A stretch of DNA of 52,052 bases from Bacillota bacterium (lineage in GTDB: Bacteria; Bacillota; Clostridia; Lachnospirales; Bianqueaceae): contig JAFRUE010000013.1 of the NCBI GenBank assembly GCA_017441925.1, forward strand, positions 1-52,052, in the 5' to 3' direction. A model generated the notes under the pieces. It worked only from the letters and a program-made list of their open reading frames with translations, was not told where the DNA came from and made no database searches. The translations under genes were made by a program, and so were the position numbers. This document shows, piece after piece, positions 9,071 through 26,722 of this stretch (the first letter of the stretch is position 1; every line of letters begins with the position of its first letter).

Positions 9071-11347
9071 TTATTTCCCGGCGGCTGTCCTGGCCTGTTT
9101 CCTGTATTCGGCAGGACTGACGCCTTCCAGTTTCTTAAACGCGCGGGTCAGGGCCTGCGCATCCCAGAAGCCGACGGCTTTCGCGACATTGCTGACATTG
9201 TCCGAAAGCAGGAGCTCCTTGGCCTTGGCGATGCGCAGCGTCTGAATGTATTCCAGTATGTTGATGCCGTAACTGTCCTTAAAGGCGTGAGAGAGGGCAG
9301 AGACGCTGGTACCGAACTGTTCCGCGATGGAGCTGACGTTGAGTCCGGGGTCCGTCAGATGGTCCTGAATATACGTCTGTACGCGCTTCATATAGCTCTG
9401 ATCGTCTTTCTGACGGCTTCCTTCGGTATGGGCCGCCACCTGATCGACAACGTCGTGCAGGATCGTTTCTTTGTCGAGGATGTATCTGGATTCGAAATAA
9501 CGCTGCTCAAAATTCAGCGAACGGATATAGTTCCAGCCCTCGGGGTATTTCTGCTGGAGAGCCATCATCAGAACGATGGCGACGGTGTAGGCGCGGATCT
9601 GGGCGGTTGAAGCGTTCTCTTTGCCGGTCGGAATCGCGTGCAGGAAGATATCATTGATGGCTTCATGAGCGTTGGAAAGGCCTGATGTAATGATCGTGTT
9701 TTCGAGCTTCCGGACCAGATTGCAGTAGCTGACAAAATCCGCGTCCGAGATGATGTCGGAATCCTCCGGACGGAAAGGTCCCCAGACATTGAGGTAAGAG
9801 ATGTCCGTATAGAGGTCTGAAACGGTCTCTTCCAGGTCGGCTGTCCCGGTATTATAATGTATGGCTGTCTGGAAGAGAGCACAGCCCGTGCTTTCCGTGA
9901 AGCTTGTATGGATGCTTTCGCGGATCGTCTCGAGTTCCGGCAGATCCGCGGATCCGCAGGAGACGACGATTACATGCCAGTCTTTCAGGATCGTGGCACG
10001 TATACCGGTAAAACGCTGGAACAGCTGGTTGGACAGTATGATGGAGAGGTCTTCGTAGAGCTCCTGATCGGATGGAGAATCAGAGCCTTCGGTCCTGGCG
10101 GGGTAGGACTGGGCCCACATCGCATATCCCTGCTGCGGATAGATGTCGGCCATGTTCAGACAGAATTCCAGATTGGAAAGATTCTGCCGGTTCTCCGGAA
10201 AACTGTGAAGGCGGTTCATCGTGTTGCCGAGAGCCCAGGAGTTGAGGCGCAGATTATTGCGCTGCAGCTGGGAATTGGTCTGTTTCAGCATGGACAGCTC
10301 GGTGGTTACAGAACTGATCATCTGACTGATGTCCGTATCGGAAGACAGACGAGGCCGCCCAGTGGTCTGGGTGAGCCGGTGCAGCGGGATCAGGACTCTT
10401 TTGCTGACAAAGTGAACGATAAGCACAAGGGAAATGATAACGATCAGGGCGGTCGACACAAGCAGCAGGATTGAGTCAGAAGTGATCCTTTTTGTGAAAG
10501 CGGTGGAAATACCGGCCGTAACGAAGCTATTTGATAAGGTACAGGGGACTGTGACGGACTGGTATTCGACGTCGTTTAGTGTAAATAGACCGTTCAGACG
10601 GCTGCCGATCAGGGCTGCCCTGTAATTCTCCCTTGAGACAATATGCGTCGCGGTAAAGCAATCCGAGCTGTTCCCGAAGAATATGACGATATCGTCGCCC
10701 GAAGCTGTAAAAGTAGTTAAGAACGGGATCAGATTGAATTCCAGAAAGACATAGAACGCAGAACCGTTATCGGCAGAGCATCTGTTCAGGATCAGGTCCT
10801 TAGGGTTTTTCTCTGTGGCGGGGAACCAGGAAATGCCGCTTTTCATCAGAGAGAGGCTGTCGGAGGGTATTTCAGGGTAGTTGATGAAGAACTCCGCAGT
10901 CTCATCGCCTGTCAGATACCGGGACTGCGTGATGACCATCCCGACCTCGGGAAAGTAGAGCGCGAGGAAATTGATGTGTTCTCCGTAGAGTGTGACCTGG
11001 CTTGCAAGCAGCTTCTGGAGGTCATAAGCGTCCCGTGTAATGAGTGCACGGTCTGTGCTGTCATCATAGAGGGAGAAAGCCGTGACAAGACTGTTGGCGC
11101 TGATTACGTCAGAGAGAGTCTTATATCCGGAGACCAGGGATTCGGTCTGTTCAGAGATCGTTTCGATCTCGTGCTGTGAGAGCTCTCTCGAGCGCTGGAC
11201 GATCGAACTTACCCTCCGTATCAGGAAAACAAAAAGAATGATCAGTATGACGGCAACGAATACGAAGACGATCAGGATCCGGATGAAATCGCCGATCGAA
11301 CGTTTCTCAGGGACCGTATTGCCGCCTGCGGTGTTTTTTTTATTCAA
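9071..11347 (-). CDS. Membrane-bound AraC family transcriptional regulator
   Basis: A 758-residue protein. A membrane helix at about residues 21-43 and a second at about 291-313 enclose an extracytoplasmic domain of about 250 residues, probably a dCache-like sensor. A cytoplasmic linker follows, and the last 100 residues are two AraC-type helix-turn-helix motifs (LNVSSIAEQFGTSVSALSHA and NVSNVAKAVGFWDAQALTRA, ending VSPAEYRKQ). This layout is common in Clostridia beside carbohydrate or peptide ABC transporters. The start is a TTG at 11347 preceded by AGAGG; no ATG is available in frame. The gene is divergent from the binding-protein gene at 11626, so it probably senses the transported compound and controls that operon. 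Confidence 0.85.
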   Translation of the reverse strand: MNKKNTAGGNTVPEKRSIGDFIRILIVFVFVAVILIILFVFLIRRVSSIVQRSRELSQHEIETISEQTESLVSGYKTLSDVISANSLVTAFSLYDDSTDRALITRDAYDLQKLLASQVTLYGEHINFLALYFPEVGMVITQSRYLTGDETAEFFINYPEIPSDSLSLMKSGISWFPATEKNPKDLILNRCSADNGSAFYVFLEFNLIPFLTTFTASGDDIVIFFGNSSDCFTATHIVSRENYRAALIGSRLNGLFTLNDVEYQSVTVPCTLSNSFVTAGISTAFTKRITSDSILLLVSTALIVIISLVLIVHFVSKRVLIPLHRLTQTTGRPRLSSDTDISQMISSVTTELSMLKQTNSQLQRNNLRLNSWALGNTMNRLHSFPENRQNLSNLEFCLNMADIYPQQGYAMWAQSYPARTEGSDSPSDQELYEDLSIILSNQLFQRFTGIRATILKDWHVIVVSCGSADLPELETIRESIHTSFTESTGCALFQTAIHYNTGTADLEETVSDLYTDISYLNVWGPFRPEDSDIISDADFVSYCNLVRKLENTIITSGLSNAHEAINDIFLHAIPTGKENASTAQIRAYTVAIVLMMALQQKYPEGWNYIRSLNFEQRYFESRYILDKETILHDVVDQVAAHTEGSRQKDDQSYMKRVQTYIQDHLTDPGLNVSSIAEQFGTSVSALSHAFKDSYGINILEYIQTLRIAKAKELLLSDNVSNVAKAVGFWDAQALTRAFKKLEGVSPAEYRKQARTAAGK

Positions 11348-11417
11348 TGGAATGACCTCTTATGAAATATAAACAGAAAACTACGGGCTGAAACAGGAAA
11401 AAGCTCTCTTTATGCTC

Positions 11418-11446
11418 ATCATAGCAGTGAAACCGGACAGTGTCAA
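11418..11446 (-). promoter_or_regulatory. Promoter of the AraC-type regulator
   Basis: On the minus strand: TTGACA (11441-11446), 17-base spacer, TATGAT (11418-11423). It leaves a leader of about 65 bases before the TTG start. Confidence 0.8.
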
Positions 11447-11513
11447 TCTTTTTTTGAGGACTCTTCATTTTTTGAAAAAAGCAAATTCTCCGATTTTTAT
11501 CATTTTTTGAATA

Positions 11514-11542
11514 TTGTTTATATTTGATTTGCGGAATATGAT
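11514..11542 (+). promoter_or_regulatory. Candidate promoter of the ABC transporter/creatininase operon
   Basis: TTGTTT (11514-11519), 17-base spacer, TATGAT (11537-11542). The -35 is weak, which suits a promoter that needs an activator such as the divergent AraC-type protein. The very A/T-rich stretch 11455-11525 upstream could hold its binding site; I could not define a repeat there. Confidence 0.5.
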
Positions 11543-11625
11543 GGCTACAGTAACAGCCGGCAGCACGGACGAGTCCTAGCTGCATCCGGCAAAATCATAC
11601 TTATTCTATAAAGGAGAGTAAAGCA

Positions 11626-13209
11626 ATGAAGAGACAGTGGAAGCGTATCCTTGCGATGCTCCTTACAGCAGTTATGCTGATGGGCGTTCTCGCAGGCTGC
11701 AAATCCGGAAGCAGCGACGGAGGATCCAAGTCCGGAGACAAGGGCGGAGATCTTGTTTATACAACTGCTTTCAGTGAATTTTTCAACCCCTACAAGCAGG
11801 GCACACTGATCGGTTACGGCTGGCCTTGTTATGAGCCTCTTGCATGGTACAAGAGTGCGACACATGAGTTCACCCCCATGCTTGCTGAGAGCTGGGAACG
11901 TGATGAGGCGAACAATGCCCTCGTTATTCACGTACGTAAGGGAATCACGTTCTCTAACGGAGACGTGATGGATGCTACTGACGTAGCATGGACATTCCAG
12001 GCAAGACTGGATTACGGCACTCAGTCCACGATCGGTGCTCCTGAGAAGGTCGAAAAGGTCGATGATTACACTGTTAAGGTCTACTATCCCGAGTTCTCCC
12101 TGAACTGGGAAGTCTGGCTGCTGACACAGTACATCTTCTCTTATGAGACATTCGTAGAGCACGGCGGAGACAACGGCGGCGTTGACTGGTACATGAACAA
12201 TATGATGGGAACCGGTCCTTACGTACTGCAGGAATACACACCGGACGTTGTTCTGAAATTTGTCCGCAACGAGAAATACTGGGGCAAGGAAGTTCCTCAG
12301 TTCGAGACCTGCACATTCAACTATTCCTCTGACGGAACTGCTCAGCTCGCGGCATTCCTGAACCATGAGTCCGATCGTTTCACCACCAGTGATCCCGTTG
12401 TTATGGCTCAGCTGAAGGAAGCCGGCTATGAAGGAACAACCGGTGCTGCTGTCAGCGGCGTTCAGTACTATGCGGTACCGATCACCCTTGATCCGGATGC
12501 GCCTCTGTCCAACATTGATGTCCGTAAGGCGATCTATCTGTATGGTATCGACTGGGATAGCATGGCGAAGACGGTTGTAGGCGACAATGCTTATCACACC
12601 AGCGCGATCGGATTCCATGAGAGCCCGTATTACGATGAGAGCATTGAGAAGTGCGAGGTCGATTATGAAAAGGCCAAGAAGATGCTGGCTGACGCCGGAT
12701 ATCCGAACGGCTTCGATGTTCAGATCTATGGTATCGGCGCTATGGCCTCCGGTGTTGAGACCTATCTGCAGGCAGAGCTCAAGAAGATCGGCATTAATGC
12801 TGAGATCTCTGACACTGACTTCGGTACCGTACAGGGCAACTACCTGAGCGGTAAGGAAGCTCAGACCGGTATTGCCGTATGGGTACAGGCAATAAATGCT
12901 GACCAGCAGCTTGACAGATTCACCAAGCATTTCAATCCGAACGGAGCAACAGCTTCCGGATGCACCAACTGGACGGATGCTCTGAAGGAGAAGTGGACTG
13001 CTACCGCAACTGCTAAGACGAACGAAGAAATGGAGAAGAACCTTCTGGACTACTGCAACCAGTATGTCAACGAAGACTGCATGTTCTGGCCTTGCTATAC
13101 TTCAACTTCTATGGTGTACTATCAGGAGTACTATCATGAGAAACCGGAAGCGGCTGCTGTAAACTGCGGTTATGATCCCTTCTGCATCTCCAAGGACGCA
13201 GGTAAATAA
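11626..13209 (+). CDS. ABC transporter substrate-binding lipoprotein, family 5 (copy 1)
   Basis: A 527-residue lipoprotein: signal peptide with lipobox LAGC (Cys25), a short Gly/Ser/Lys linker, then a family-5 (DppA/OppA-type) binding protein. Typical family segments are PMLAESWERD, HVRKGITFSNGD, GTGPYVL and the late IDVRKAIYLYGID. It would sit on the outer face of the membrane and deliver a peptide or other solute to the permeases encoded at 15012-16875. GGAGAG lies about 9 bases before the ATG. It is the first gene of the operon, and a hairpin follows it at 13298-13347. A full paralogue comes next, which makes two binding proteins for one transporter. Confidence 0.9.
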   Translation: MKRQWKRILAMLLTAVMLMGVLAGCKSGSSDGGSKSGDKGGDLVYTTAFSEFFNPYKQGTLIGYGWPCYEPLAWYKSATHEFTPMLAESWERDEANNALVIHVRKGITFSNGDVMDATDVAWTFQARLDYGTQSTIGAPEKVEKVDDYTVKVYYPEFSLNWEVWLLTQYIFSYETFVEHGGDNGGVDWYMNNMMGTGPYVLQEYTPDVVLKFVRNEKYWGKEVPQFETCTFNYSSDGTAQLAAFLNHESDRFTTSDPVVMAQLKEAGYEGTTGAAVSGVQYYAVPITLDPDAPLSNIDVRKAIYLYGIDWDSMAKTVVGDNAYHTSAIGFHESPYYDESIEKCEVDYEKAKKMLADAGYPNGFDVQIYGIGAMASGVETYLQAELKKIGINAEISDTDFGTVQGNYLSGKEAQTGIAVWVQAINADQQLDRFTKHFNPNGATASGCTNWTDALKEKWTATATAKTNEEMEKNLLDYCNQYVNEDCMFWPCYTSTSMVYYQEYYHEKPEAAAVNCGYDPFCISKDAGK

Positions 13210-13297
13210 TACGTAAGAAAATCAAGAACCATACCGCTTCCTCGGAGCGGACAGGAGATCTGTCCCGGAGGAAGACGGAACGTCACTAAGATCATAG

Positions 13298-13347
13298 GGA
13301 AGCCGTTGTGCAGCAAAAGGACAGAGCAGTCCGAAACAGCGGCTTCC
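13298..13347 (+). terminator. Intercistronic hairpin between the two binding-protein genes
   Basis: GGAAGCCG (13298-13305) pairs with CGGCTTCC (13340-13347) and an inner arm GGAC/GTCC extends it. Only a short T-poor tail follows, so it is more likely a partial terminator or mRNA-stabilising 3' structure than a full stop. It would let the first binding protein be made in excess over the rest, as is usual for ABC importers. Confidence 0.55.
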
Positions 13348-13402
13348 TTCTTAGAATCAAAGATCTTCTGTAACAGGGACATCTACGGAAAGGGGGCATA
13401 TC

Positions 13403-14965
13403 ATGAAGAGAATCATGGCAATCGTATTGTTGCTGGTATTCTGTTTTCGTATGGTATGCTGCGCTCCCGGCCGTCCCGAAGAGCCGGAGATCTCGGAACC
13501 TGCGGCAGAGCGGGGCGGAGACGTTGAGCTCGCCTACAGGAGTATCAAGGAATTCTTCAATCCGTACAAGCAGAGTACAATGATCAGTTATGCCTGGCCG
13601 TGCTATGAACCGCTTGCCTGGTACAAGAGCGCGTCACAGGAATTCGTACCGATGCTTGCGGAGAGCTGGGAGAGGAATGACAGAGAGCATTCGCTGACTA
13701 TACATATCCGCAAGGGGATCAGCTTTTCCAACGGTGATCCGATGAATGCGCAGGATGTCTATTTTACACTGCAGTCGAGAATCGAGTTCGGGACGCAGTC
13801 CGTCATCGGTAATCCCAGACGCATTGAGGCCGTTGACGAATACACCGTCAAAGTATACTGGCAGGATTATTCCATGAACTATGAGCTCTGGGTCCTGACA
13901 CAGTATATCTTTTCCAAAGAGACGTTCGATGCCAAAGGCCTGGACTGGATGCTCAACAATATGGTCGGTACCGGCCCATATGTAATGGAAGAGTATACAC
14001 CGGACGTAGTGCTGCGGTTTGTCCGCAATCCGGAATACTGGGGAGATAAACTGCCGCAGCCGGAAACGATAACATTCCAATGTATAGCTGACGATACTGC
14101 GACAGTCGCTGCCTTTCTGAACGGCGATATTGACAAGATCTCCACTGCAGACGAAGTACAGATCCGGGAGATCCTGGATGCCGGATACAAGGAGGCAGAG
14201 TTAACGGAAACTCAAGGCTATCAGTATTATGCGATCCCGATCACGCTGGATGCGGAGGCACCGCTCTCTGACAGAACGGTCCGGCAGGCCGTTTTCCTTC
14301 ACGGGATCGATTGGGACCGGATGGCAGAGATGTGCGGCGGCAGCAAAGCGTATCATACAAACGTCATCGGGCTGCATGAATCTCCATACTATTCCGGAGA
14401 GATCGAACATTGCGCCTATGATCCGGATAAAGCAGCCAGAATGCTGTCTGAGGCCGGATATGGGGACGGATTCAAGATCGTGATCTACGGTATGGGCAAA
14501 GCGACCGCTCCGCTTGCTGCTTTCCTACAGTCAGAGCTTGAAAAACTGGGCATTACGGCAGAAGTCCATGATACGGATTTTACGACCGTGCAGGGAGATT
14601 ATCTGAGCGGCAAAGAAGCCGCGACGGGTATCGCGCTCTTTGCGCAGCAGATCGCAGCAGATCAGCAGCTGGACAGGTTTGTCAAGCATTTCAGTCCGTT
14701 TAACGCGACGGTATCCGGATGCACCGGCTGGACCGAGGAGATCAAGGACAAGTGGCATGCGGTACTCGCGGCCCGTTCGGAAGAGGAATTGGAAAAAGGG
14801 CTGCTGGATTACTGCCGCAGCTACATTAACGAAGAGTGCCTGATCTGGCCCTGTTATACGATTCCCAACGCGGTTTTTTTTCAGGACTCTTATACGGAAG
14901 AGAAAGAAGCCGCGGCTGTTAACTGCGGATTTGATCCCTTCTACATATTTAAGGATACAGAATAA
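13403..14965 (+). CDS. ABC transporter substrate-binding lipoprotein, family 5 (copy 2)
   Basis: A 520-residue paralogue of the preceding gene; the two align over their whole length (shared EFFNPYKQ, WPCYEPLAWYKSA, MLAESWER, QQLDRF.KHF and VNCG.DPF). The signal peptide is less regular: the hydrophobic core is interrupted by Arg16, and the lipobox is either FRMVC (Cys19) or MVCC (Cys20). GGGGGC precedes the ATG at 13403. Codon choice differs somewhat from copy 1, which looks more optimised, so copy 1 may be the highly expressed form. Duplicate binding proteins usually widen the ligand range of one transporter. A transporter role is sure; the ligand is unknown. Confidence 0.9.
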   Translation: MKRIMAIVLLLVFCFRMVCCAPGRPEEPEISEPAAERGGDVELAYRSIKEFFNPYKQSTMISYAWPCYEPLAWYKSASQEFVPMLAESWERNDREHSLTIHIRKGISFSNGDPMNAQDVYFTLQSRIEFGTQSVIGNPRRIEAVDEYTVKVYWQDYSMNYELWVLTQYIFSKETFDAKGLDWMLNNMVGTGPYVMEEYTPDVVLRFVRNPEYWGDKLPQPETITFQCIADDTATVAAFLNGDIDKISTADEVQIREILDAGYKEAELTETQGYQYYAIPITLDAEAPLSDRTVRQAVFLHGIDWDRMAEMCGGSKAYHTNVIGLHESPYYSGEIEHCAYDPDKAARMLSEAGYGDGFKIVIYGMGKATAPLAAFLQSELEKLGITAEVHDTDFTTVQGDYLSGKEAATGIALFAQQIAADQQLDRFVKHFSPFNATVSGCTGWTEEIKDKWHAVLAARSEEELEKGLLDYCRSYINEECLIWPCYTIPNAVFFQDSYTEEKEAAAVNCGFDPFYIFKDTE

Positions 14966-15011
14966 TACAGGACTGTGTCTGCAGTCCTGAAAATCATCAA
15001 AGGAGTTTTTG

Positions 15012-15956
15012 ATGGGTAAATATATACTGAAGAGACTTTTGCAGATGATCGTCGTTATGTTCCTGGTCTCTTTCCTGACTTACGTTCTCATCGGCATCAT
15101 GCCTCGTGATCCGATCTATTCACTGTACGGGTCGGATGTTACGCCTGCCGAGTACGAGGTCATCTATCACAGGATGGGACTGGACAAGCCCGTTATCGTA
15201 CGTTACTTTAACTGGCTGGTCAACTTCTTCAAGGGCGACCTAGGGACATCGTACGCATATCATATGCCGGTCATGGAAATCATCGGACAGAAGATCGGCG
15301 TTACACTGTATCTGTCCATCGTATCTACACTAATCTCTTTCCCGCTCGGCATGCTTTTCGGCATCATTACCGCCGTTAAGCGCGGAAAGTGGCAGGATAC
15401 GACGCTGACGCTCGTGGCGAACATCTCGGCAAGTATCCCGGGCTTTGTCATCGCGATCGCGCTGCTGTTCCTGTTCTGCATCAACTGGAAGATCCTTCCG
15501 TCCCGCGGATTCACCTTCCCGTGGGAGAATTTCGGAGATCATATCCGGCAGATCATCCTTCCGATGTTCTGTCTGTCGCTCGGCGGCATTGCCGGTATCA
15601 CCAGACAGACCCGTTCCAGCATGCTGGAAGCGATGCGTCAGGACTATGTCCGGACCGCGCGCTCCAAAGGTCTGCAGGAGAATTACATCATCAGCAAACA
15701 CGTTCTGCGGAACGGCCTGATCCCGATCATCACCCTGATCGGCGGCAGACTTGCCGGCATGATCGGTGGCTCGGTCTTCATCGAGAACGTTTTCTCGATC
15801 CCCGGCATGGGTACCCTGATGGTCAACTCTGTTAACCAGATCGATGTTCCGGTTATTCAGGCCTGCGTCCTGATGACATCAGGCTGCATGTGTCTGGCGT
15901 TCTTCATCACGGATATGCTGTATCTTGCAGTCGATCCGCGTATTTCGCTGAAGTAA
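15012..15956 (+). CDS. ABC transporter permease, DppB type
   Basis: A 314-residue inner-membrane permease of the dipeptide/oligopeptide/nickel family. It begins MGKYILKRLLQMI, the usual N-terminus of DppB/OppB, and carries six predicted helices, the TQTR-like segment around GITRQTRSSMLEAM, and the EAA loop DYVRTARSKGLQENYI that docks on the ATPase. I chose the ATG at 15012, seven bases after AGGAG, over an in-frame TTG at 15009. It lies 46 bp after the second binding protein and 13 bp before the partner permease. Confidence 0.93.
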   Translation: MGKYILKRLLQMIVVMFLVSFLTYVLIGIMPRDPIYSLYGSDVTPAEYEVIYHRMGLDKPVIVRYFNWLVNFFKGDLGTSYAYHMPVMEIIGQKIGVTLYLSIVSTLISFPLGMLFGIITAVKRGKWQDTTLTLVANISASIPGFVIAIALLFLFCINWKILPSRGFTFPWENFGDHIRQIILPMFCLSLGGIAGITRQTRSSMLEAMRQDYVRTARSKGLQENYIISKHVLRNGLIPIITLIGGRLAGMIGGSVFIENVFSIPGMGTLMVNSVNQIDVPVIQACVLMTSGCMCLAFFITDMLYLAVDPRISLK

Positions 15957-15969
15957 GGAGGCAGAGACG

Positions 15970-16875
15970 ATGAATACGAATCCTAATCCTGCCGTTAAGA
16001 AAACGGCAAAGCAGGTTCTGTCAGAGAAACTCACGGCCTTCCGTAAATTCATGCGGGTCATGACCAGCCGCAAGATCGTTGTCGTCGGCATTATCGGAAC
16101 ACTGTTCTTTATACTGGTAGCCATTTTTGCACCGGTCATTGCAACACAGGATCCCAACCTGATCACGACAGACGGCAAGCTCCTTCCGTTCTCATCCGCG
16201 CACTGGTTCGGCACGGACTATCTGGGACGCGACCTGTACTCCCGTCTTGTCTACGGTACGCGCGTATCGATCCTGACAGGCGTTATTTCCACACTGATGG
16301 CTGTTGTCGTCGGCTCCTTCCTCGGAATGCTGGCTGCGTACTGCGGCGGTATCGTAGACAAGATCCTGATCGGCTACTGTGAAGTCTTCAATTCGATCCC
16401 GGGCATCGCGCTTTCGCTGACGTTGATCACGCTTTTCGGCGGCGGCATGATGAATATGGCATTCATCCTTATGGTAACGGGTATTCCCGGCTTCTTGCGG
16501 ATGATGCGCGCCTCAAGTCTTACAGTCATGAACAGTGACTACATCCTGGCTGCGAAGCTGTCAGGACAGTCCCGGCTGAAACAGCTTTATAAGCACGTTT
16601 TCCCGAACGCGATTTCTCCGATCATCGTTATGGCGACGCAGCATGTCGGCATGACGATCATGATGGAATCCGGACTTAGCTTCCTGGGCGTCGGTATCAA
16701 GATTCCTACGGCTTCCTGGGGTTCCATTATCAATGAAGCAAGGCCTTACCTGATGGTCGATCCCTGGTACGTTCTGCTTCCGTGTATCTTCCTTGCACTT
16801 TTGATCATCAGCCTGAACCTGCTCGGTGACGGAATCCGCGACGCGCTGGATCCCTCGCTCCGCGGTGAGGTTTAA
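15970..16875 (+). CDS. ABC transporter permease, DppC type
   Basis: A 301-residue permease, partner of the preceding gene. Family features are the cytoplasmic N-terminus followed by one helix, HWFGTDYLGRDLYSRLVYGT, and the EAA-type loop SDYILAAKLSGQSRLKQLYK before HVFPN. The C-terminus LLGDGIRDALDPSLRGEV is the standard ending of DppC/OppC proteins. AAGGAGG precedes the ATG. It is 14 bp upstream of the double ATPase and clearly cotranscribed. Confidence 0.93.
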   Translation: MNTNPNPAVKKTAKQVLSEKLTAFRKFMRVMTSRKIVVVGIIGTLFFILVAIFAPVIATQDPNLITTDGKLLPFSSAHWFGTDYLGRDLYSRLVYGTRVSILTGVISTLMAVVVGSFLGMLAAYCGGIVDKILIGYCEVFNSIPGIALSLTLITLFGGGMMNMAFILMVTGIPGFLRMMRASSLTVMNSDYILAAKLSGQSRLKQLYKHVFPNAISPIIVMATQHVGMTIMMESGLSFLGVGIKIPTASWGSIINEARPYLMVDPWYVLLPCIFLALLIISLNLLGDGIRDALDPSLRGEV

Positions 16876-16889
16876 GAGGAGGCAGTCAA

Positions 16890-18959: not shown

Positions 18960-19001
18960 GAGTAACAAATGGCTGTAAAGCCTGTGCACTAAGATAGGAA
19001 T

Positions 19002-19035
19002 CCGGCTGTCTCCGAATCCGGAGGCAGCCGGTTTT
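19002..19035 (+). terminator. Terminator or attenuator between transporter and hydrolase genes
   Basis: CCGGCTG-T-CTCCG (19002-19014) pairs with CGGAG-G-CAGCCGG (19019-19031) around a four-base loop, followed by TTTTG. The T run is short, so partial read-through into the creatininase array is likely. No clear promoter is seen between here and 19067. Confidence 0.7.
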
Positions 19036-19066
19036 GTAAAAAAGAGTAACAGGAGGGTAAGAAAGG

Positions 19067-19957
19067 ATGAGAACAAGGATTCTGAACAAGATGCTGGCGT
19101 CGGAGGTCGAAGAGTATCTGGCGCGCGGCGGCAACACGATCTTTATGGCGACAGGTGTCGTTGAGGTTCATGGAATTATCCCGATCGATGTGGAACAGAT
19201 CGTTCCCGAGGCGTATTCTGTATGCCTTGCGGAGGAGTTTGACGGACTGGCATTGATCAACAATCCGTATTTCTTCCCCGGCGGGACCATCGTCAGCAAT
19301 GCTACGGTGCAGATGAGTGTCCGCGACAGCATCGATTATCTGATGAAAATCTGGCACTCTCTGGTCGCACAGGGATTTAAGAAGATTTTCATTGTCGACG
19401 CGCACGGTCCGGCCACCCTGTATGTGGACGCGGCTGTCCGTGATTTCTTCCAGGAGACCAAGGTCATGGTCTGCCACATCAACATGAGATCCGCAAGAGC
19501 CGAGTATAATAAGAGACACGGCATCCCGCAGATGTCCATGGAGCAGATGATGGCCAGAATGAGAGATCCGGAAAATATGAAAGCAAAGCGCGTGCAGGAA
19601 TACGGTGCTTACAGAATTATGGGTCAGGAGGAATATCTGCCGGTCGTTCCGGGCGGAAAAGGCATTCCGGTCGAGATGGCGGTTGCCGACCCGCGTCTTA
19701 CCGCTCTGCAGAAAGCCTGCCGCGACTGTGGAGTCAAGGCCGCTTATTATTTCAGCAAGCCAGAAGAGCATCTGGGATATGATGATCCTGCCCAGAGTGT
19801 GGAAGAGAGGGATGCTCTCTGCGCGCAGGGCGCGGCCGAGATCCGCGAGATCGCGAGTCTGATGCCGATCAAGGAGCTGCAGGACGCGTTGGACGAGTAT
19901 GAGGGATATATCAAGGATGTGCAGGAGAAGTACCCTCGTCTGAAGGGCATCTATTAA
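19067..19957 (+). CDS. Creatininase family protein, copy 1 of 4 (most divergent)
   Basis: A 296-residue protein of the creatininase fold, whose members are metal-dependent hydrolases (creatinine and formamide hydrolysis, MftE peptidase, and as I recall the cyclitol hydrolase IolN). Visible metal-site elements are Glu33-V-His35-G, Asp41/Glu43 after Pro39, the PGGT segment at 71-74 and His113 in DAHGP. The usual NGHGGN is thus altered to DAHGPA. It is the least similar of four tandem copies: it has NNPYFFPGG where the others have NLPYNFPGG, and a longer insertion (about residues 144-170, rich in Met and Arg). AGGAGG and a good spacing support the ATG. First hydrolase after the ABC transporter. 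Confidence 0.8.
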   Translation: MRTRILNKMLASEVEEYLARGGNTIFMATGVVEVHGIIPIDVEQIVPEAYSVCLAEEFDGLALINNPYFFPGGTIVSNATVQMSVRDSIDYLMKIWHSLVAQGFKKIFIVDAHGPATLYVDAAVRDFFQETKVMVCHINMRSARAEYNKRHGIPQMSMEQMMARMRDPENMKAKRVQEYGAYRIMGQEEYLPVVPGGKGIPVEMAVADPRLTALQKACRDCGVKAAYYFSKPEEHLGYDDPAQSVEERDALCAQGAAEIREIASLMPIKELQDALDEYEGYIKDVQEKYPRLKGIY

Positions 19958-19973
19958 GAAGGAGGAAGACAAG

Positions 19974-20822
19974 ATGAGAACAAGAATCTTAAACAAAATG
20001 CTGGCGTCGGAGGTCGAGGAGTATCTGGCACGCGGCGGCAATACTATTTTTGTAGGAGTCGGCGTTGTCGAGGTTCACGGCGGCATGCCGGCGGATGTAG
20101 AGCAGATCGTTCCGGAAGCAATGGCTCTTGCTATGGCGGAGGAGTATGACGGACTGGCGCTGATCAATCTGCCGTATAATTTCCCCGGCGGCACGATCGT
20201 CAGCAACGCCACCGTTCAGATGAGCGTCCGAGACAGCATCGATTATCTGATGAAGATCTGCCATTCCCTTGTGGCGCAGGGCTTCAAGAAGATCTTTATG
20301 CTCTCCGCTCATGGCCCGGCAAGATTGTATATTGACGCGATGGTCCGTGATTTCTTCCAGGAGACCAAGGTTATGGTATGCAACATCAACACGATGCGTC
20401 CCATGATGACCTATAAGGATGAGAACGGCGAGTCCTACGGTCTGGGCATCCTTCATATGATGGCGTACGGTGGCTATAAGATGCTGCATCAGGAAGCTTA
20501 TCTCCCGGTTGATCCGAACGGCAAGCCGATTCCGGAAGAACTGACCGTACAGGATCCGAGACTTGTCCGAATGATGGACGCTGCCAGAGCATGCGGTGTC
20601 GGTGCCTGCATCCTGTTTGGCAAGCCGGAGGAGCACGGAGGCACGGATGCTCCGTTTAAGAGCATCGAGGACAGAGACGCGGCCTGTGCCAAGGGAGAGA
20701 AGATTATTCACGACATCGTCAAGAGCATTCCGATTTCCGATCTGCAGGCGGCACTGGACGATTATGAGGGCTACATCAAGGATATACAGGAGAAATACCC
20801 GCGTCTGAAGGGCATCTATTAA
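19974..20822 (+). CDS. Creatininase family protein, copy 2 of 4
   Basis: A 282-residue creatininase-fold protein that shares almost its whole sequence with copies 3 and 4. Metal-site elements are retained: VEVHG (Glu33, His35), PADVEQ after it, NFPGGT, and SAHGPA with His113. The conserved MSVRDSIDYLMKICHSLVAQ helix and DFFQETKVMVCN strand follow. The region after residue 140 (TYKDENGESYGLG) is the main variable part and may set substrate choice. AAGGAGG lies 9 bases before the ATG; the gap to copy 1 is 16 bp. Probably cytoplasmic, since there is no signal peptide. Substrate unknown. Confidence 0.8.
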   Translation: MRTRILNKMLASEVEEYLARGGNTIFVGVGVVEVHGGMPADVEQIVPEAMALAMAEEYDGLALINLPYNFPGGTIVSNATVQMSVRDSIDYLMKICHSLVAQGFKKIFMLSAHGPARLYIDAMVRDFFQETKVMVCNINTMRPMMTYKDENGESYGLGILHMMAYGGYKMLHQEAYLPVDPNGKPIPEELTVQDPRLVRMMDAARACGVGACILFGKPEEHGGTDAPFKSIEDRDAACAKGEKIIHDIVKSIPISDLQAALDDYEGYIKDIQEKYPRLKGIY

Positions 20823-20837
20823 GTCGGAGGACATGCG

Positions 20838-21683
20838 ATGAGAACAAGAATCTTAAACAAAATGCTGGCGTCGGAGGTTGAAGCGTATCTGGCGCGCGGC
20901 GGCAATACGATATTTATCGGCGTAGGCGTTGTGGAAATGCACGGCAACATGCCCGCGGATGTCGAGACGATCATGCCGGAAGCAATGGCTCTTGCCATGG
21001 CGCAGGAGTATGACGGACTGGCGCTGATCAATCTGCCGTACAATTTCCCCGGCGGTACCATTATCGGCAATGTTACGGTGCAGATGAGCGTCCGCGACAG
21101 TATCGATTATCTGATGAAAATCTGCCATTCCCTGGTCGCTCAGGGCTTTAAGAAGATCTTTACACTCTCCGCGCATGGTCCGGCCAAGCTCTATCTCGAC
21201 GCGATGGTCCGCGATTTCTTCCAGGAGACCAAGGTTATGGTCTGCAACATCGACACGATGCGTCCGATGATGAGCCTTAACGAACCCGGGAAGCCGATGG
21301 ACTTTACCATCATCCACACGATGACGGCCGGTGCATACAAGATGATGCACCAGGAATGCTATCTTCCGGTTGATCCGGACGGCAAAGCCATTCCCGAGGA
21401 GGAAACGGTGCAGGATCCGAGACTCGTTCGTCTGTCGAACGCTGCAAGGGCCTGCGGAGTGCCTGCCTGCACGGTTTATGGCAAACTTGGAGAGCACGGC
21501 AGCACCGACGCTCCGTTTAAGACCGTGGAAGAGCGCGACGCGGCCTGTGTTAAGGGCGAGGGTCTGATCCGCGAAGTCGTAAAGAAAATCCCGATCGGAG
21601 AGCTGCAGAAAGCGCTGGACGATTATGCGGAATACATTAAGGACATGCAGGAAAAATACCCTCGTCTGAAGGGAATCTATTAA
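20838..21683 (+). CDS. Creatininase family protein, copy 3 of 4
   Basis: A 281-residue copy with VEMHG in place of VEVHG, PADVET, NFPGGT and SAHGPA, so the expected metal ligands are all present. It differs from copies 2 and 4 mainly in the variable middle (SLNEPGKPMDFTIIHTMTAG) and late segment (VYGKLGEHGST where the others have FGKPEEHGGT). These differences lie in otherwise fixed sequence, which suggests functional specialisation and not decay. GTCGGAGG precedes the ATG with 15 bp to copy 2. The frame is intact throughout. Confidence 0.8.
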   Translation: MRTRILNKMLASEVEAYLARGGNTIFIGVGVVEMHGNMPADVETIMPEAMALAMAQEYDGLALINLPYNFPGGTIIGNVTVQMSVRDSIDYLMKICHSLVAQGFKKIFTLSAHGPAKLYLDAMVRDFFQETKVMVCNIDTMRPMMSLNEPGKPMDFTIIHTMTAGAYKMMHQECYLPVDPDGKAIPEEETVQDPRLVRLSNAARACGVPACTVYGKLGEHGSTDAPFKTVEERDAACVKGEGLIREVVKKIPIGELQKALDDYAEYIKDMQEKYPRLKGIY

Positions 21684-21698
21684 GAAGGAGGGCATGCG

Positions 21699-22547
21699 AT
21701 GAGAACCAGAATCTTAAATAAAATGCTGGCGTCAGAGGTCGAAGCGTATCTGGCACGCGGCGGCAATACGATTTTTGTCGGTGTTGGCGTGGTCGAGGTT
21801 CACGGCGGCATGCCGGTCGACATCGAGCAGATCGTTCCCGAAGCTTTGGCCTTGGCCATGGCGGAGGAGTATGACGGACTGGCGCTGATCAATCTGCCGT
21901 ACAATTTCCCCGGCGGCACGATCGTCAGCAACGCGACCGTTCAGATGAGCGTCCGCGACAGCATCGATTACCTGATGAAGATCTGCCACTCACTGGTCGC
22001 ACAGGGATTCAAGAAGATCTTTATGCTCGCCGCGCATATGCCCGCGCCGCTGTATATCGACGCGATGGTCCGTGATTTCTTCCAGGAGACCAAGGTCATG
22101 GTCTGCGACGTCAACATGATGAAGCCGATGATGAGCTATAAGGATGAAAACGGACAGCCGTACGGTTTCGGCATTCTGCACGCGATGGCTTACGGCGCGT
22201 ACAAGATGCTGCATCAGGAGGACTATCTGCCGGTCGATCCGAACGGCAGACCGATTCCGGAAGAACTGACCGTACAGGATCCGAGAATGATCCGTCTTAC
22301 CAACGCGGCAAGAGCCTGCGGCGCTAACGCCTGCATCATTTTCGGCAAGCCGGAGGAACACGGCGGCACCGAAGCTCCGTTCAAGAGCATCGAAGAACGA
22401 GACGCGGCCTGTGCCAAGGGTGAGAAGATCATCCGCGGAGTTGTGAAGACAGTCCCGATTCCGGAGCTGCAGGCAGCGCTGGACGATTATGAAGGCTACA
22501 TTAAGGACATGCAGGAAAAATACCCTCGTCTGAAGGGAATCTATTAA
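21699..22547 (+). CDS. Creatininase family protein, copy 4 of 4
   Basis: A 282-residue copy very close to copy 2. Glu33 and His35 (VEVHG) and PVDIEQ are kept, but the second metal-site segment reads AAHMPAP: the Gly after His113 that is fixed in the other three copies is Met. The variable middle is SYKDENGQPYGFG. If the loop still coordinates metal, substrate access should differ. AGGAGGG lies before the ATG and the gap to copy 3 is 15 bp. The next gene, a ChbG/YdjC-type protein, starts 12 bp after the stop codon, so the operon continues. Confidence 0.8.
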   Translation: MRTRILNKMLASEVEAYLARGGNTIFVGVGVVEVHGGMPVDIEQIVPEALALAMAEEYDGLALINLPYNFPGGTIVSNATVQMSVRDSIDYLMKICHSLVAQGFKKIFMLAAHMPAPLYIDAMVRDFFQETKVMVCDVNMMKPMMSYKDENGQPYGFGILHAMAYGAYKMLHQEDYLPVDPNGRPIPEELTVQDPRMIRLTNAARACGANACIIFGKPEEHGGTEAPFKSIEERDAACAKGEKIIRGVVKTVPIPELQAALDDYEGYIKDMQEKYPRLKGIY

Positions 22548-22559
22548 GAGGTGAAAACG

Positions 22560-23381
22560 ATGGCAAAACTGATTCTTCAGTCCGATGACTACGGCATTAC
22601 CCCGGCAGTCGCAAGCGGTATCATCTACGGTATCGAGCACGGCGCGATCCGCAACACAGGTTTCTTTACCAACATGCCCTGGGCGGCAGAATGCGCGGAG
22701 ATGATCAAGCCCTATCTTGACAAGATCGCTCTGGGCATTGACTTCAATCTTTGCAACGGATTCCCGGTATGCGACCCCAAGGATGTCCCGACACTGGTCG
22801 ACGCAGACGGACGTTTCATCGACATGAATACGCACCGCAGGCGCTTCGCGGAAGACAATCCGGACGCGAAAGCTCCCTGGGCGCCCGGCAAAGATCACTG
22901 TGATCCGGCGGATGTCGAGCGTGAATTCCGTGCGCAGCTGGAGCGTTTCCGTGAGCTGATCGGCAGAGATCCCGATTATTTCCACGCACATGCTTACGCT
23001 CCGACGCAGCATTCCGAGATCATCCTGAAGCTGGCCGACGAGTGCGGGAAACCCAGTTCCCTGAGAATGCGTGATTATGCCAACGTCGGCTCGACGATGG
23101 GCTGGTATATCAATCCGCCGACCTATGAGAACCAGATGAAAGCCGACATGCTCGGATTCCTGACGGATCCCAAGAATTCTGCGGATCTTCTTGACAAAGA
23201 GTACATTTACATCATCTGCCACTGTGGTTATGTCGATGAGCCGCTCTTCCACGAGGGCAACTTCAATGTCGTCAGAACGCAGGATCTGCGCAGCGCGACT
23301 TCTCCCAAGCTCTTCAAATGGATGGAGGAAAACGACATCGTCCTGTCTGATTTTCGTGAATTCGCGGCTTCTCAGAAATAA
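22560..23381 (+). CDS. ChbG/YdjC-type carbohydrate deacetylase-like protein
   Basis: A 273-residue protein of the ChbG/HpnK family (TIM-barrel-like, metal-dependent deacetylation of N-acetylated sugars). The N-terminal SDDYG (Asp9, Asp10) and the HAHAYAP segment (His142, His144) are present. At the position of the usual metal-binding His61 in the consensus GxHxxL it has Asp61 (LGIDFNL). That may change metal or reaction, so deacetylase activity is not certain. I chose the ATG at 22560, six bases after AAGAGGTG, over an in-frame GTG at 22551. Last gene of the plus-strand run; a 17-bp stem hairpin follows. Confidence 0.75.
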   Translation: MAKLILQSDDYGITPAVASGIIYGIEHGAIRNTGFFTNMPWAAECAEMIKPYLDKIALGIDFNLCNGFPVCDPKDVPTLVDADGRFIDMNTHRRRFAEDNPDAKAPWAPGKDHCDPADVEREFRAQLERFRELIGRDPDYFHAHAYAPTQHSEIILKLADECGKPSSLRMRDYANVGSTMGWYINPPTYENQMKADMLGFLTDPKNSADLLDKEYIYIICHCGYVDEPLFHEGNFNVVRTQDLRSATSPKLFKWMEENDIVLSDFREFAASQK

Positions 23382-23420
23382 GCGAACACGGTAAATTATC
23401 GATAGAATCCGCAACAAACG

Positions 23421-23465
23421 CAAGAACTCCCTGCGGCTCGTACCTCATGCCGCAGGGAGTTCTTG
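23421..23465. terminator. Hairpin between converging operons
   Basis: A perfect 17-bp stem (CAAGAACTCCCTGCGGC at 23421-23437 with its complement at 23449-23465) and an 11-base loop sits between the two converging gene sets. The T runs on either side are poor, so it is a strong structure but a weaker classical terminator. Confidence 0.7.
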
Positions 23466-23513
23466 TATTGTCATGAATGATCTGGCAGAGTCTGTAAACC
23501 CGCTACAGAGACT

Positions 23514-24341
23514 TTACAGTCCCAGAACGTCCCTGATGTAGATCCGGGACACTTCAGCAGAGTGGAAGTTACCGACCTCTGGCCGGTCGAGCTCGACGCA
23601 GAGCACGCCGTCGTAGCCTTCTTCCTCCAGGGCAGCTTTAACACCCTTGAAGTCCACGGTCCCATGCCCTAGCGCTCGGAAAGTCGCCATCTTGGCGCGG
23701 CCTTCGGCTTTCTTCAATTCGAAGGTGTCGACGTCTTTAAGATGCATGAAGCCGATGCGCGACCCGATTTTGTGAATCAGGGCGACAGGATCCATGCCGG
23801 CGAGGGTCGTATGGGCCGTATCGATGCAGAAGGAGACGAATTCCGGGTTTGTATGCTCCAGCATGTAGTCGATATCGCTCTCATTGAAAACGCAGGTCCC
23901 GTAATGCGGATGGAAGCAGAGCGTCACGCCGACGGATTTGGCATACTCGCCGACAGCATTCGCGATCGTGCAGATCTTGTCGAGCATCTCGGGATTGGTC
24001 GGACGCTCGGACGGACCGTCGTCGCCAAAACCGCCGTTCTGGCAGTTGAACCACTTGCCGCCGATATCGGCGATGAATTTGACCTGCTTTTTAGCCCGCT
24101 CGATCTCGGCTTCCACGTCAAATGTGAAATGTCCGTAGAGATTACAGAGATATACGCCGCAGCGTTTGGTCATCTCGACGAGCTCCTGCGGATCCGGGAA
24201 ATAATCCGCGATGAACGCGAAATTCTCGATGTAATCATATCCGAGGAATTTGCACTCCCGGAATGATTCTTCCAGCTGACGCTTGGCGCCTTCGGGTGTT
24301 CTGTCCTTGATCCAGGTCCAGGTCGTATAACAGGGTTTCAT
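23514..24341 (-). CDS. Sugar isomerase/epimerase TIM-barrel protein, IolE-like
   Basis: A 275-residue protein of the xylose-isomerase-like TIM-barrel (AP endonuclease 2) family. FHPHYGT, then a stretch with SDIDYMLEHTNPEFVSFCID, TAHT, MHLKDVD and VELDRP give the usual His, Asp, His and Glu metal ligands in the usual order. The FHPHYGT to CIDTAHT block is close to what I know of IolE (inosose dehydratase) and relatives such as IolO-type epimerases. It lacks a signal peptide. AAGGAGG precedes the ATG on the minus strand. It is the last gene of a three-gene minus-strand operon behind a Gfo/Idh oxidoreductase, which is a common pairing in cyclitol and sugar acid pathways. Confidence 0.8.
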   Translation of the reverse strand: MKPCYTTWTWIKDRTPEGAKRQLEESFRECKFLGYDYIENFAFIADYFPDPQELVEMTKRCGVYLCNLYGHFTFDVEAEIERAKKQVKFIADIGGKWFNCQNGGFGDDGPSERPTNPEMLDKICTIANAVGEYAKSVGVTLCFHPHYGTCVFNESDIDYMLEHTNPEFVSFCIDTAHTTLAGMDPVALIHKIGSRIGFMHLKDVDTFELKKAEGRAKMATFRALGHGTVDFKGVKAALEEEGYDGVLCVELDRPEVGNFHSAEVSRIYIRDVLGL

Positions 24342-24373
24342 AGTAATCCTCCTTATGATATTCGTCAGATTGT

Positions 24374-25564: not shown

Positions 25565-25584
25565 AGTGCCTCCTTCTATCCGGT

Positions 25585-26550
25585 TTATTTCCTGTAATCG
25601 TAGAATCCTTTGCCGGCGTTGACTCCGGTCTCGCCCTTGTCGATCTTCTCCTTGAGCAGGGCGCCGATCCGGTTCGTCAGAGAGCCTTCCACTTTGGCAT
25701 CCGGCTTCATCTGGTTGATATTGTAAGCGGTCTCCAGGCCGACGACATCAAGAATCTGGAAAGGTCCTGCCGGCGCGCCGGTCGCGAGTCTCCAGGTCAG
25801 GTCGATAGTCTCCGTATCCGCGACTCCGTTAGCCCACAGAGCCTGCGCGGCGCTCAGGAAAGGCACGAGCATTGAATTCAGAATGTATCCCGGCTGCTCC
25901 TTGTACAGCTTCAGCGGAACCATACCGATCTGCGCGGCAAATTCGACGACCTTGTCATATACGGCCGGATCTGTTCCCGGATGCCCCATGACTTCTGCAG
26001 TGTTGTTCTTCCAGATCGTATTGGCGAAATGCAGAGCGCAGTATCTGTCCGGGCAGCCGGTATAGGACGCGAACGTGCTCGGAAGCATGGTGGAGGAATT
26101 GGTGCAGAGGATCGTCTTCTCAGGGAGCAGATCCTTCATGGCGGTATACATACCGATCTTGGCCTGAGGATCCTCAGTCATGGACTCGATAACGATATCC
26201 GCGTCCTCAAGCGCCTTGGCAAGATCCAGCTCGATATGGACCTTTGTGGCGAAATTATTCTTTGCTTCCGCGATCTGCGCGTCGATGCTCTCAGCCGTGG
26301 CAGCTTTCCAGTCGCGGATCAGGCCTTTCGGATAGACAAAAGCACCCATCGGTGTGCCGACAAGAGCTTTTGCTTTAGCCAGATCCTCCAGCATCAGAGC
26401 GGAGTAACGGTCGATCTTAGGCTGAGTTCTGCCGATAGAGCTCTCCGACCTCAGCCAGAAAGTCGTATCGAATCCATAATAAGCGCTCATCAGGCCGATC
26501 TGCGTGCCGAGAACGCCGCCGCCGGTGACGACAACTTTGTTGATAGCCAT
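25585..26550 (-). CDS. 3-hydroxyacyl-CoA dehydrogenase-type NAD-dependent dehydrogenase
   Basis: A 321-residue two-domain dehydrogenase: an N-terminal Rossmann fold with TGGGVLGTQIG, the NSSTM and ALHFANT segments of the 3-hydroxyacyl-CoA dehydrogenase N domain (His in the latter is the catalytic position), and a helical C domain ending GKGFYDY. Length fits both 3-hydroxybutyryl-CoA dehydrogenase and the L-gulonate 3-dehydrogenase/lambda-crystallin branch. Beside sugar-type oxidoreductases the latter, acting on a sugar acid, seems at least as likely. I chose the ATG at 26550 because AAAGGGG lies 9 bases upstream; an in-frame ATG at 26583 would put that site inside the gene. First gene of the minus-strand operon. 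Confidence 0.82.
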   Translation of the reverse strand: MAINKVVVTGGGVLGTQIGLMSAYYGFDTTFWLRSESSIGRTQPKIDRYSALMLEDLAKAKALVGTPMGAFVYPKGLIRDWKAATAESIDAQIAEAKNNFATKVHIELDLAKALEDADIVIESMTEDPQAKIGMYTAMKDLLPEKTILCTNSSTMLPSTFASYTGCPDRYCALHFANTIWKNNTAEVMGHPGTDPAVYDKVVEFAAQIGMVPLKLYKEQPGYILNSMLVPFLSAAQALWANGVADTETIDLTWRLATGAPAGPFQILDVVGLETAYNINQMKPDAKVEGSLTNRIGALLKEKIDKGETGVNAGKGFYDYRK

Positions 26551-26604
26551 TGTGTGTATCCCCTTTCGATATTCAGTTTGCATTTACTGCATGTTTCTGA
26601 ATCG

Positions 26605-26634: not shown

Positions 26635-26636
26635 TA

Positions 26637-26651
26637 TGAAAATGATTCGCA
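26637..26651. promoter_or_regulatory. Possible second Fur-family box
   Basis: TGAAAAT-G-ATTCGCA resembles the 7-1-7 pattern TGAtAATnATTaTCA of Fur-family regulators, with weaker agreement on the right arm. It lies between the two divergent -35 boxes, so it could affect either promoter. Supported only by similarity. Confidence 0.35.
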
Positions 26652-26701: not shown

Positions 26702-26722
26702 GATTTCAATATGGAGGCAGCA

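What the first reader, a model, noticed from the sequence alone, without database searches (positions are those of the whole stretch)
9071..26550. Possible undescribed catabolic locus built round four tandem creatininase-fold hydrolases
A membrane-bound AraC-type sensor, a family-5 ABC importer with duplicated binding proteins and a fused ATPase, four paralogous creatininase-fold proteins and a ChbG-like protein face a convergent operon of IolE-like TIM barrel, Gfo/Idh oxidoreductase and hydroxyacyl-CoA-dehydrogenase-type genes. Seen: gene order, tight spacing and family motifs. Known: creatininase-fold enzymes hydrolyse amides, and as I recall one branch (IolN) opens a diketo-cyclitol ring in an alternative inositol pathway that also uses Gfo/Idh and IolE/IolO-type enzymes. 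Inferred: the locus degrades a cyclitol-like or amide-containing solute imported by the ABC system. A peptide-type importer for such a solute would be new.
Basis: partly seen in the sequence, partly recalled or inferred. Interest (0 to 1): 0.78.

Follow-up and report, generated by a model that had tools for sequence, protein, structure and literature searches.

The report
Importer-linked array of creatininase-fold hydrolases
An uncultured clostridial bacterium carries four side-by-side copies of an uncharacterised branch of creatininase-fold proteins next to an ABC nutrient importer and its regulator gene; together they likely take up and hydrolyse a sugar-like nutrient that nobody has yet identified.

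Summary
The gene content is confirmed: an AraC-type regulator with two hydrophobic segments, a family-5 ABC importer (two binding proteins, two permeases, fused ATPase), four tandem creatininase-fold genes, a YdjC/ChbG-type gene, and a convergent HCDH-Gfo/Idh-IolE-like operon.

Importer, AraC gene and a tandem array stand together again in a distant Clostridia genome (three copies, 41-43% identity). The convergent operon is separable: a Gfo-IolE pair occurs without the array in another genome, and the distant array genome has no such Gfo. It has its own perfect promoter, back to back with that of a Fur-family gene, with Fur-type boxes between.

The four copies meet the tests for neither IolN, creatininase nor MftE. 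They form a distinct branch in which the aspartate of the first metal motif is always glutamate, the glutamate of the third motif is gone and another histidine is invariant. Most relatives examined sit near sugar transporters, sulfatases or sugar-phosphate enzymes, which favours a carbohydrate-like substrate; amide hints remain. Family-5 importers for sugars are known, and Agrobacterium also pairs one with a creatininase-family gene. Substrate and reaction are unknown: a new variant of a known kind, worth testing.

The parts
9071..11347 (-). AraC-family regulator, two predicted transmembrane segments flanking an extracytoplasmic region (TTG start)
   Evidence: PF12833 76.5 bits; hydropathy; homologue 26% identical over 751 aligned positions beside the importer in G764; 82% over 408 in sister
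11626..13209 (+). family-5 solute-binding lipoprotein SBP1
   Evidence: PF00496 199.5 bits; 93% over 272 residues in sister
13403..14965 (+). family-5 solute-binding protein SBP2 (57% identical to SBP1)
   Evidence: PF00496 220.8 bits
15009..15956 (+). ABC permease (OppB/DppB type)
   Evidence: PF00528; 67% identical in G764, 97% in sister
15970..16875 (+). ABC permease (OppC/DppC type)
   Evidence: PF00528, PF12911
16890..18959 (+). fused double ABC ATPase
   Evidence: two PF00005 and two PF08352 stretches; 75% identical over 667 positions in G764
19002..19031 (+). terminator-like hairpin between importer and array
   Evidence: 13 pairs, 10 GC, tail TTTTGTAAAA; consensus match only
19067..19957 (+). 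creatininase-fold copy c1 (with a 14-residue insert)
   Evidence: PF02633 41.4 bits; alignment
19974..20822 (+). creatininase-fold copy c2
20838..21683 (+). creatininase-fold copy c3
   Evidence: PF02633 53.9 bits
21699..22547 (+). creatininase-fold copy c4
   Evidence: PF02633 48.3 bits
22551..23381 (+). YdjC/ChbG-type protein
   Evidence: PF04794 126 bits; 86 bits to ChbG model, cut-off 227
23514..24341 (-). IolE-like TIM barrel (AP_endonuc_2)
   Evidence: PF01261 104 bits; IolE model 116 bits, cut-off 290; PDB best 3cny IolE, 56.5 bits
24374..25564 (-). Gfo/Idh/MocA oxidoreductase
   Evidence: PF22725 and PF01408; IolG model 64.5 bits, cut-off 355; PDB best DgpA1, 59 bits
25585..26583 (-). 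3-hydroxyacyl-CoA dehydrogenase-type protein (likely start 26550)
   Evidence: NF006143/PRK08293 384 bits, over its cut-off of 312; PDB best diketoreductase 4dyd, 252 bits
26605..26634 (-). perfect sigma-70-type promoter of the HCDH operon
   Evidence: 12 of 12, spacer 18; 0 perfect sites in 60 simulated windows; the sister has the same two hexamers with spacer 17
26637..26651 (.). Fur-type 7-1-7 box between the two promoters
   Evidence: 3 mismatches to a recalled consensus; 15/15 identical in the sister
26658..26686 (+). perfect sigma-70-type promoter of the divergent Fur-family gene
   Evidence: 12 of 12
26687..26701 (.). Fur-type 7-1-7 box at the Fur-family gene
   Evidence: 1 mismatch to a recalled consensus
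26711..27136 (+). Fur-family regulator, followed by ABC/ABC-3 transporter genes
   Evidence: PF01475 62.9 bits; PF00005 and PF00950

Best explanation
The genes at 9071-23381 encode a two-hydrophobic-segment AraC-type regulator, a family-5 ABC importer, four tandem proteins of a distinct creatininase-fold branch and a YdjC/ChbG-type protein, which together likely sense, import and hydrolyse one class of carbohydrate-like solute. Inferred mechanism: the extracytoplasmic part of the AraC protein senses the solute and switches on the divergent importer; two binding proteins with different preferences deliver it; inside the cell the four metallohydrolases, whose ends are nearly identical but whose middle differs, each open a ring or cleave an ester or amide bond in related compounds; the YdjC-type protein removes an acyl group. 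The convergent HCDH-Gfo/Idh-IolE-like operon is a separable, separately promoted module that would oxidise a polyol or sugar to a ketone and dehydrate or eliminate it, in the manner of IolG/IolE or of the levoglucosan enzymes; that it acts on the products of the array is a guess from adjacency. Shown: gene content, fold, branch, altered motif residues, and regulator, importer and array side by side in two genomes, with the parts (on three contigs) in a sister. Inferred: induction, substrate class, all reactions.
For: Families and fold. Linkage: G764 has three tandem relatives, an AraC homologue and the orthologous importer in a row; sister G007 has AraC next to SBP1, SBP1-SBP2-PermB-PermC, and cre-cre-ChbG facing IolE-Gfo-HCDH, on three contigs, at 75-97% identity. 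Importer tracks the array clade: SBP1 relatives at E <= 1e-20 in 3 of 3 array-clade genomes (G000, G007, G764), against 1 of 4 genomes whose relatives fall in the other clade (G110, 27% identity; none in G006, G305, G555) and none in G650, whose relative was not placed in the tree. Branch: the 42 subfamily rows in the tree (26 of the 120 listed homologues used) lie apart from 13 creatininase-family references with 100/100 support. Carbohydrate-like context of relatives: MFS_2 sugar symporters (L021, L023), Amidohydro_2 (L021, L022), SBP_bac_1 importer with sulfatase (L020), class-II aldolase plus PFK plus sulfatase (L007). Non-peptide importer: the DppA/OppA motif aspartate aligns with N, A and P in SBP1, SBP2 and the G764 protein.
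Against: No substrate is known and no reaction was tested. A terminator-like hairpin separates importer and array. Relatives outside the array clade occur without this importer, so proteins of this branch do not need it. The sugar-like context rests on 5 loci at 34-40% identity to c3, outside the array clade or on another contig; a sixth, L024, shows no sugar-type neighbour by eye (not scanned). ChbG, and the amidase genes beside two IolE orthologues, hint at an amide instead. The loss of motif residues could mean a changed or lost activity. The DppA comparison is at about 20% identity, so residue correspondence is unsure.
Confidence: 0.5

Rival explanations
1. Cyclitol catabolism: Gfo/Idh and the IolE-like protein oxidise and dehydrate an inositol-like ring and the creatininase-fold enzymes open the diketone ring in place of IolD or IolN.
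For: Nearest NCBIfam models of the convergent operon are IolE (116 bits) and IolG (64.5 bits); IolE is the best solved relative of the TIM barrel; the genome has no IolD match and no KduI/IolB match at E <= 0.001; 50 of 57 subfamily members match the IolN model weakly.
Against: IolN scores are at most 20.4 bits for c1-c4 against a cut-off of 245, and the plain creatininase model matches more members (57 of 57). Gfo-IolE orthologues occur where no creatininase relative was found (G122 as a pair, G036 on two contigs; G122 is only 86% complete), and G764 has the array without the Gfo at E <= 1e-20. IolE, IolG and IolO scores are all far below their cut-offs.
Confidence: 0.15
2. Amide route: the solute is an N-acylated amino sugar or cyclic amide; ChbG-type deacetylase and the creatininase-fold enzymes are C-N hydrolases acting in series.
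For: ChbG/YdjC gene at the end of the array; creatininase acts on a cyclic amide and a further creatininase-family protein is a formamide hydrolase (PMC9478397, passages); amidase genes beside IolE orthologues in G036 and G122; the Agrobacterium analogue has an asparaginase-type and a polysaccharide-deacetylase-type gene beside creatininase and family-5 importer.
Against: Motif residues of known members are altered throughout the subfamily; sugar-phosphate enzymes and sugar symporters flank other relatives, though two loci also have Amidohydro_2 genes. The amidase neighbours belong to genomes in which no array relative was found.
Confidence: 0.2
3. Glycoside oxidation-elimination: Gfo/Idh makes a 3-keto glycoside and the TIM barrel eliminates the aglycone, as in levoglucosan and C- or O-glycoside breakdown; the array hydrolyses acyl or lactone groups of the plant product.
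For: DgpA enzymes are the first and third best solved relatives of the Gfo/Idh (59 and 51.5 bits); levoglucosan dehydrogenase model 49 bits; the Lgd pathway combines a Gfo/Idh/MocA-annotated dehydrogenase with two sugar-phosphate-isomerase-annotated enzymes beside ABC transporter genes (PMC7676230, passages).
Against: Scores are low, IolG is somewhat higher (64.5 bits), the TIM barrel's best matches are IolE, and no second subunit of a C-deglycosidase was recognised in the Pfam scans of the window neighbours.
Confidence: 0.15
4. The convergent operon belongs to metal-starvation physiology: the Fur-family regulator (with ABC-3 importer, hence perhaps Zur) represses HCDH-Gfo-IolE from the shared intergenic region, and it has nothing to do with the array.
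For: Two perfect divergent promoters, two Fur-type boxes, one fully conserved in the sister, Fur and ABC-3 genes divergent, conserved order in the sister.
Against: The box nearer the HCDH promoter has 3 mismatches, and sites of up to 3 mismatches arise about twice per window by chance (mean 1.88; 7 seen; 1 of 100 shuffles reached 7); the sister is a close relative, so conservation is weak evidence; a shared intergenic region does not prove shared control.
Confidence: 0.3

Closest known systems
Creatininase (EC 3.5.2.10), PDB 1j2t, 1q3k, 3a6j; TIGR04448
   Different: 13-17% identity; 31-42.5 bits against a cut-off of 235; the aspartate of the first motif is glutamate, position of E122 is proline, glutamate of the third motif absent
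3-dehydro-scyllo-inosose hydrolase IolN, NF041098
   Same: Same superfamily; weak match in two of four copies
   Different: At most 20.4 bits against 245; no IolO among the neighbours by score
MftE, TIGR03964, and formamide hydrolase BrbF (PMC9478397)
   Same: Creatininase superfamily
   Different: The two MftE references fall with the 13 outgroup proteins, 100/100; no mycofactocin or riboflavin gene among the window proteins scanned between 7020 and 34509. BrbF itself was not compared
Family-5 importer + creatininase-family locus of Agrobacterium plasmid pAtCFBP6625b (CP039913.1)
   Same: SBP_bac_5, two permeases, fused ATPase, creatininase-family gene, deacetylase-type gene, SDR-annotated oxidoreductase
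   Different: Single copy outside this branch, other deacetylase family, winged-helix regulator (as annotated) instead of AraC
Levoglucosan (Lgd) and myo-inositol (IolG/IolE) modules
   Same: Gfo/Idh-type dehydrogenase with a TIM-barrel partner of the sugar-isomerase type; Lgd also with ABC transporter genes (PMC7676230, passages)
   Different: All these curated models score far below cut-off; extra HCDH-type gene; no IolD, no IolB in the genome

Membership tests
Creatininase superfamily (PF02633) | Score over Pfam's gathering cut-off (31.3 bits) | tested here: met
   41.4, 51.1, 53.9, 48.3 bits
Creatininase superfamily (PF02633) | Creatininase fold | tested here: met
Creatininase (EC 3.5.2.10), TIGR04448 | Equivalog score 235 bits | tested here: not met
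   31.0, 40.4, 38.1, 42.5 bits
Creatininase (EC 3.5.2.10), TIGR04448 | Metal-ligand set E34, H36, D45, H120, E122 (numbering recalled) | tested here: not met
   Aligned residues E33, H35, E43, H113, P115
Creatininase (EC 3.5.2.10), TIGR04448 | Hydrolysis of creatinine | not testable with these tools
   Needs enzyme assay
IolN, NF041098 | Equivalog score 245 bits | tested here: not met
   20.4 and 18.5 bits for c2 and c3, none at E <= 0.001 for c1 and c4
IolN, NF041098 | Partner genes of the alternative inositol pathway (IolM, IolO; recalled) | tested here: inconclusive
   In the locus the IolE-like protein scores 22 bits to IolO (cut-off 300) and there is one Gfo/Idh; the rest of the genome was not searched for them
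MftE, TIGR03964 | Score 172 bits, mycofactocin neighbours | tested here: not met
   No MftE match at E <= 0.001 for c1-c4; no mft-type gene among the neighbours scanned
IolE (TIGR04379) | Equivalog score 290 bits | tested here: not met
   116 bits; still the best-scoring model
3-hydroxyacyl-CoA dehydrogenase PRK08293 (NF006143) | Score 312 bits | tested here: met
   384.4 bits; activity not tested, best solved relative is a diketoreductase
Peptide-binding family-5 SBP (DppA/OppA) | Aspartate binding the peptide N-terminus (role recalled) | tested here: inconclusive
   Aligned residue is N, A, P in SBP1, SBP2 and the G764 protein, at about 20% identity
Peptide-binding family-5 SBP (DppA/OppA) | DppA equivalog score (1005 bits) | tested here: not met
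   SBP1 69 bits and SBP2 62 bits

The most novel reading that the evidence does not exclude
A separate branch of creatininase-fold enzymes has rebuilt its metal site (aspartate to glutamate, third-motif glutamate lost, another histidine invariant) for a hydrolytic reaction not yet known in the fold, and runs it as a recombining tandem array of three to four specialised paralogues fed by its own importer, so that one gene set breaks down a family of related plant- or host-derived ring compounds.
Probability: 0.3. Interest if true: 0.65.

Novelty: new variant of a known kind. Interest (0 to 1): 0.45.

Why it matters
Creatininase-fold proteins mostly carry the default name 'creatininase family protein'. 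This branch has a clear residue signature, tandem arrays and a linked importer, so a binding assay of two lipoproteins could reveal the substrate and with it the reaction. If the reaction is new, it would add a step to gut and rumen carbohydrate breakdown and give a meaning to a family of at least 148 proteins; the 120 listed are nearly all unnamed, and the few names shown are 'creatinine amidohydrolase' or 'creatininase family protein'.

Tried and rejected
IolN identity: rejected on curated scores. One indivisible locus: rejected because the convergent operon and the array occur apart. HCDH orthologues were looked at in 5 of the 15 further genomes with a match at E <= 1e-70 (64-75% identity): none stood beside an orthologous Gfo, IolE or creatininase-fold gene; one (L036) has a Gfo-family gene of 26.6% identity about 6 kb away. 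In G764 only the Gfo was sought genome-wide; IolE and HCDH relatives were merely absent from its array contig. Viral contigs: 95 stretches matched a pattern, none encodes a relative. Phylum-wide sample with the deep alignment: only the own genome of 388 at E <= 1e-25. A taxon name was not found.

Observed but not decisive: the four copies are mosaic. c3 and c4 share the last 51 nt exactly and differ at 12 of the last 99 nt, while they differ from their sister orthologues at 12 and 13; this suggests gene conversion, but the stretch is short.

Full report
What is there. On the plus strand from 11626 to 23381 stand two family-5 binding-protein genes, two permease genes, one gene for a fused pair of ABC ATPases, four creatininase-fold genes and a YdjC/ChbG-type gene. 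An AraC-type gene with two hydrophobic segments is divergent to them. A convergent operon (IolE-like TIM barrel, Gfo/Idh oxidoreductase, 3-hydroxyacyl-CoA-dehydrogenase-type protein) ends about 130 bp away. The four creatininase-fold genes are the only PF02633 matches in the 2.7-Mb genome. The nearest genome with a public record title is an 'uncultured Clostridiales' MAG with the isolate name RUG12817 (RUG for rumen is recalled).

The residue signature is the strongest fact. Among c1-c4 and the 120 listed homologues (124 rows), E33, E43, E48, H113, P115 and H221 are present in all and H35 in 99%. E33, H35, E43, E48, H113 and H221 stay invariant in the 57-row alignment with distant members. In eight references the position of E43 is aspartate in 8 of 8; in seven subfamily rows it is glutamate in 7 of 7. 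A third-motif glutamate, five residues after a histidine, is present in 7 of 8 references (not in the Priestia protein) and is glycine or alanine in 7 of 7 subfamily rows. In the alignment to solved creatininases, D45 falls on E43 and E122 on P115 (ligand numbers recalled). So the first ligands remain and the rest of the site differs. What this does to activity is not known.

Conservation of the unit. Relatives of the branch are rare: 5 of 392 sampled genomes of the order and 3 of 391 of the class, each count including the own genome, and only the own genome of 388 in a phylum-wide sample at E <= 1e-25. Metagenome-derived databases hold more (148 proteins at E <= 1e-5). Several listed homologues share one contig length (three with 15,153 bases), which suggests further arrays, but those contigs could not be read. 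In G764 three tandem copies (41-43% identical to window copies) stand beside AraC genes and the orthologous importer, whose permease is 67% and ATPase 75% identical. In sister G007 AraC-SBP1, SBP1-SBP2-PermB-PermC, and cre-cre-ChbG|IolE-Gfo-HCDH lie on three contigs in agreeing order; the join of importer and array was not seen there. Of ten genomes searched with SBP1, four match at E <= 1e-20: the three array genomes and, at 27% identity, G110.

The convergent operon is a neighbour that can occur alone. IolE orthologues (64-66%) exist in 2 further genomes of 392: in G122 beside a 60% Gfo and an amidase gene, in G036 beside amidase pieces, with the Gfo on another contig near an acyl-CoA dehydrogenase gene. 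Neither genome, both in the order sample, matched the creatininase-fold profile at E <= 1e-20. G764 has the array and no Gfo at E <= 1e-20. HCDH orthologues in five genomes examined stand elsewhere. The operon has a perfect promoter (26634-26605), back to back with a perfect promoter for a Fur-family gene; no perfect site arose in 60 simulated windows. Fur-type boxes lie at 26687-26701 (one mismatch) and 26637-26651 (three mismatches, identical in the sister). Seven such sites in the window against 1.9 expected is only a modest excess. Control by the Fur-family protein, perhaps Zur given the ABC-3 genes, is inferred.

Substrate. For a carbohydrate-like compound speak the neighbours of relatives: MFS_2 sugar symporters in two loci (L021, L023), Amidohydro_2 in two (L021, L022), an SBP_bac_1 importer with sulfatase in the same genus (L020), and class-II aldolase, PFK and sulfatase in L007; L024 shows none by eye. 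In the Subdoligranulum record (L045) parts of another family-5 importer (26-50% identical) lie 2-7 kb downstream of the relative. For an amide speak ChbG, the amidases beside IolE orthologues, and the Agrobacterium analogue with asparaginase-type and deacetylase-type genes. Against a dipeptide speaks the missing aspartate of the DppA/OppA motif (low identity). Family-5 proteins named for agrocinopines or chitin oligosaccharides are among the solved relatives of SBP2, so a non-peptide ligand would be ordinary for this family.

Judgement. The finding is real and under-described, but it is a variant of a known kind: a regulated importer with dedicated hydrolases. The cyclitol idea is one option among several and the IolN link fails its test. 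The most valuable part is the branch itself, with its altered site and its arrays.

Noticed in passing
26600-26710: Two perfect, divergent sigma-70-type promoters with Fur-type boxes between the HCDH operon and a Fur-family/ABC-3 gene set.
   Followed up: partly
19002-19031: Strong terminator-like hairpin (13 pairs) between the importer ATPase gene and the creatininase array; may lower array expression.
   Followed up: no
21633-21683 and 22497-22547: c3 and c4 share the last 51 nt exactly and are as close to each other over the last 99 nt as to their sister orthologues; possible gene conversion in the array.
   Followed up: partly
13403-14965: SBP2 is 75% identical to its sister counterpart while the permeases and SBP1 are 93-97%; the second receptor seems to evolve faster.
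   Followed up: no
3627-6881: 1084-aa protein with a TIR domain (ThsB_TIR/TIR_2) upstream of the locus.
   Followed up: no
32098-34509: 803-aa protein with a GH95-type catalytic domain (55 bits), near an Lgt gene (31315-32076) and an 825-aa lipoprotein-like protein without Pfam match (28838-31315).
   Followed up: no
7020-8913: Auxin-efflux-type (Mem_trans) transporter gene followed by a nucleoside-hydrolase-type gene, upstream of the AraC gene; a 43% identical Mem_trans gene follows another family-5 importer in G764 (L034).
   Followed up: no
L059:4604-13956: Agrobacterium plasmid locus pairing a family-5 importer with fused ATPase, a creatininase-family gene and a polysaccharide-deacetylase-type gene.
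   Followed up: partly
L026:11415-14207 and L027:8319-12433: IolE orthologues beside amidase-signature genes in two genomes of another family.
   Followed up: partly
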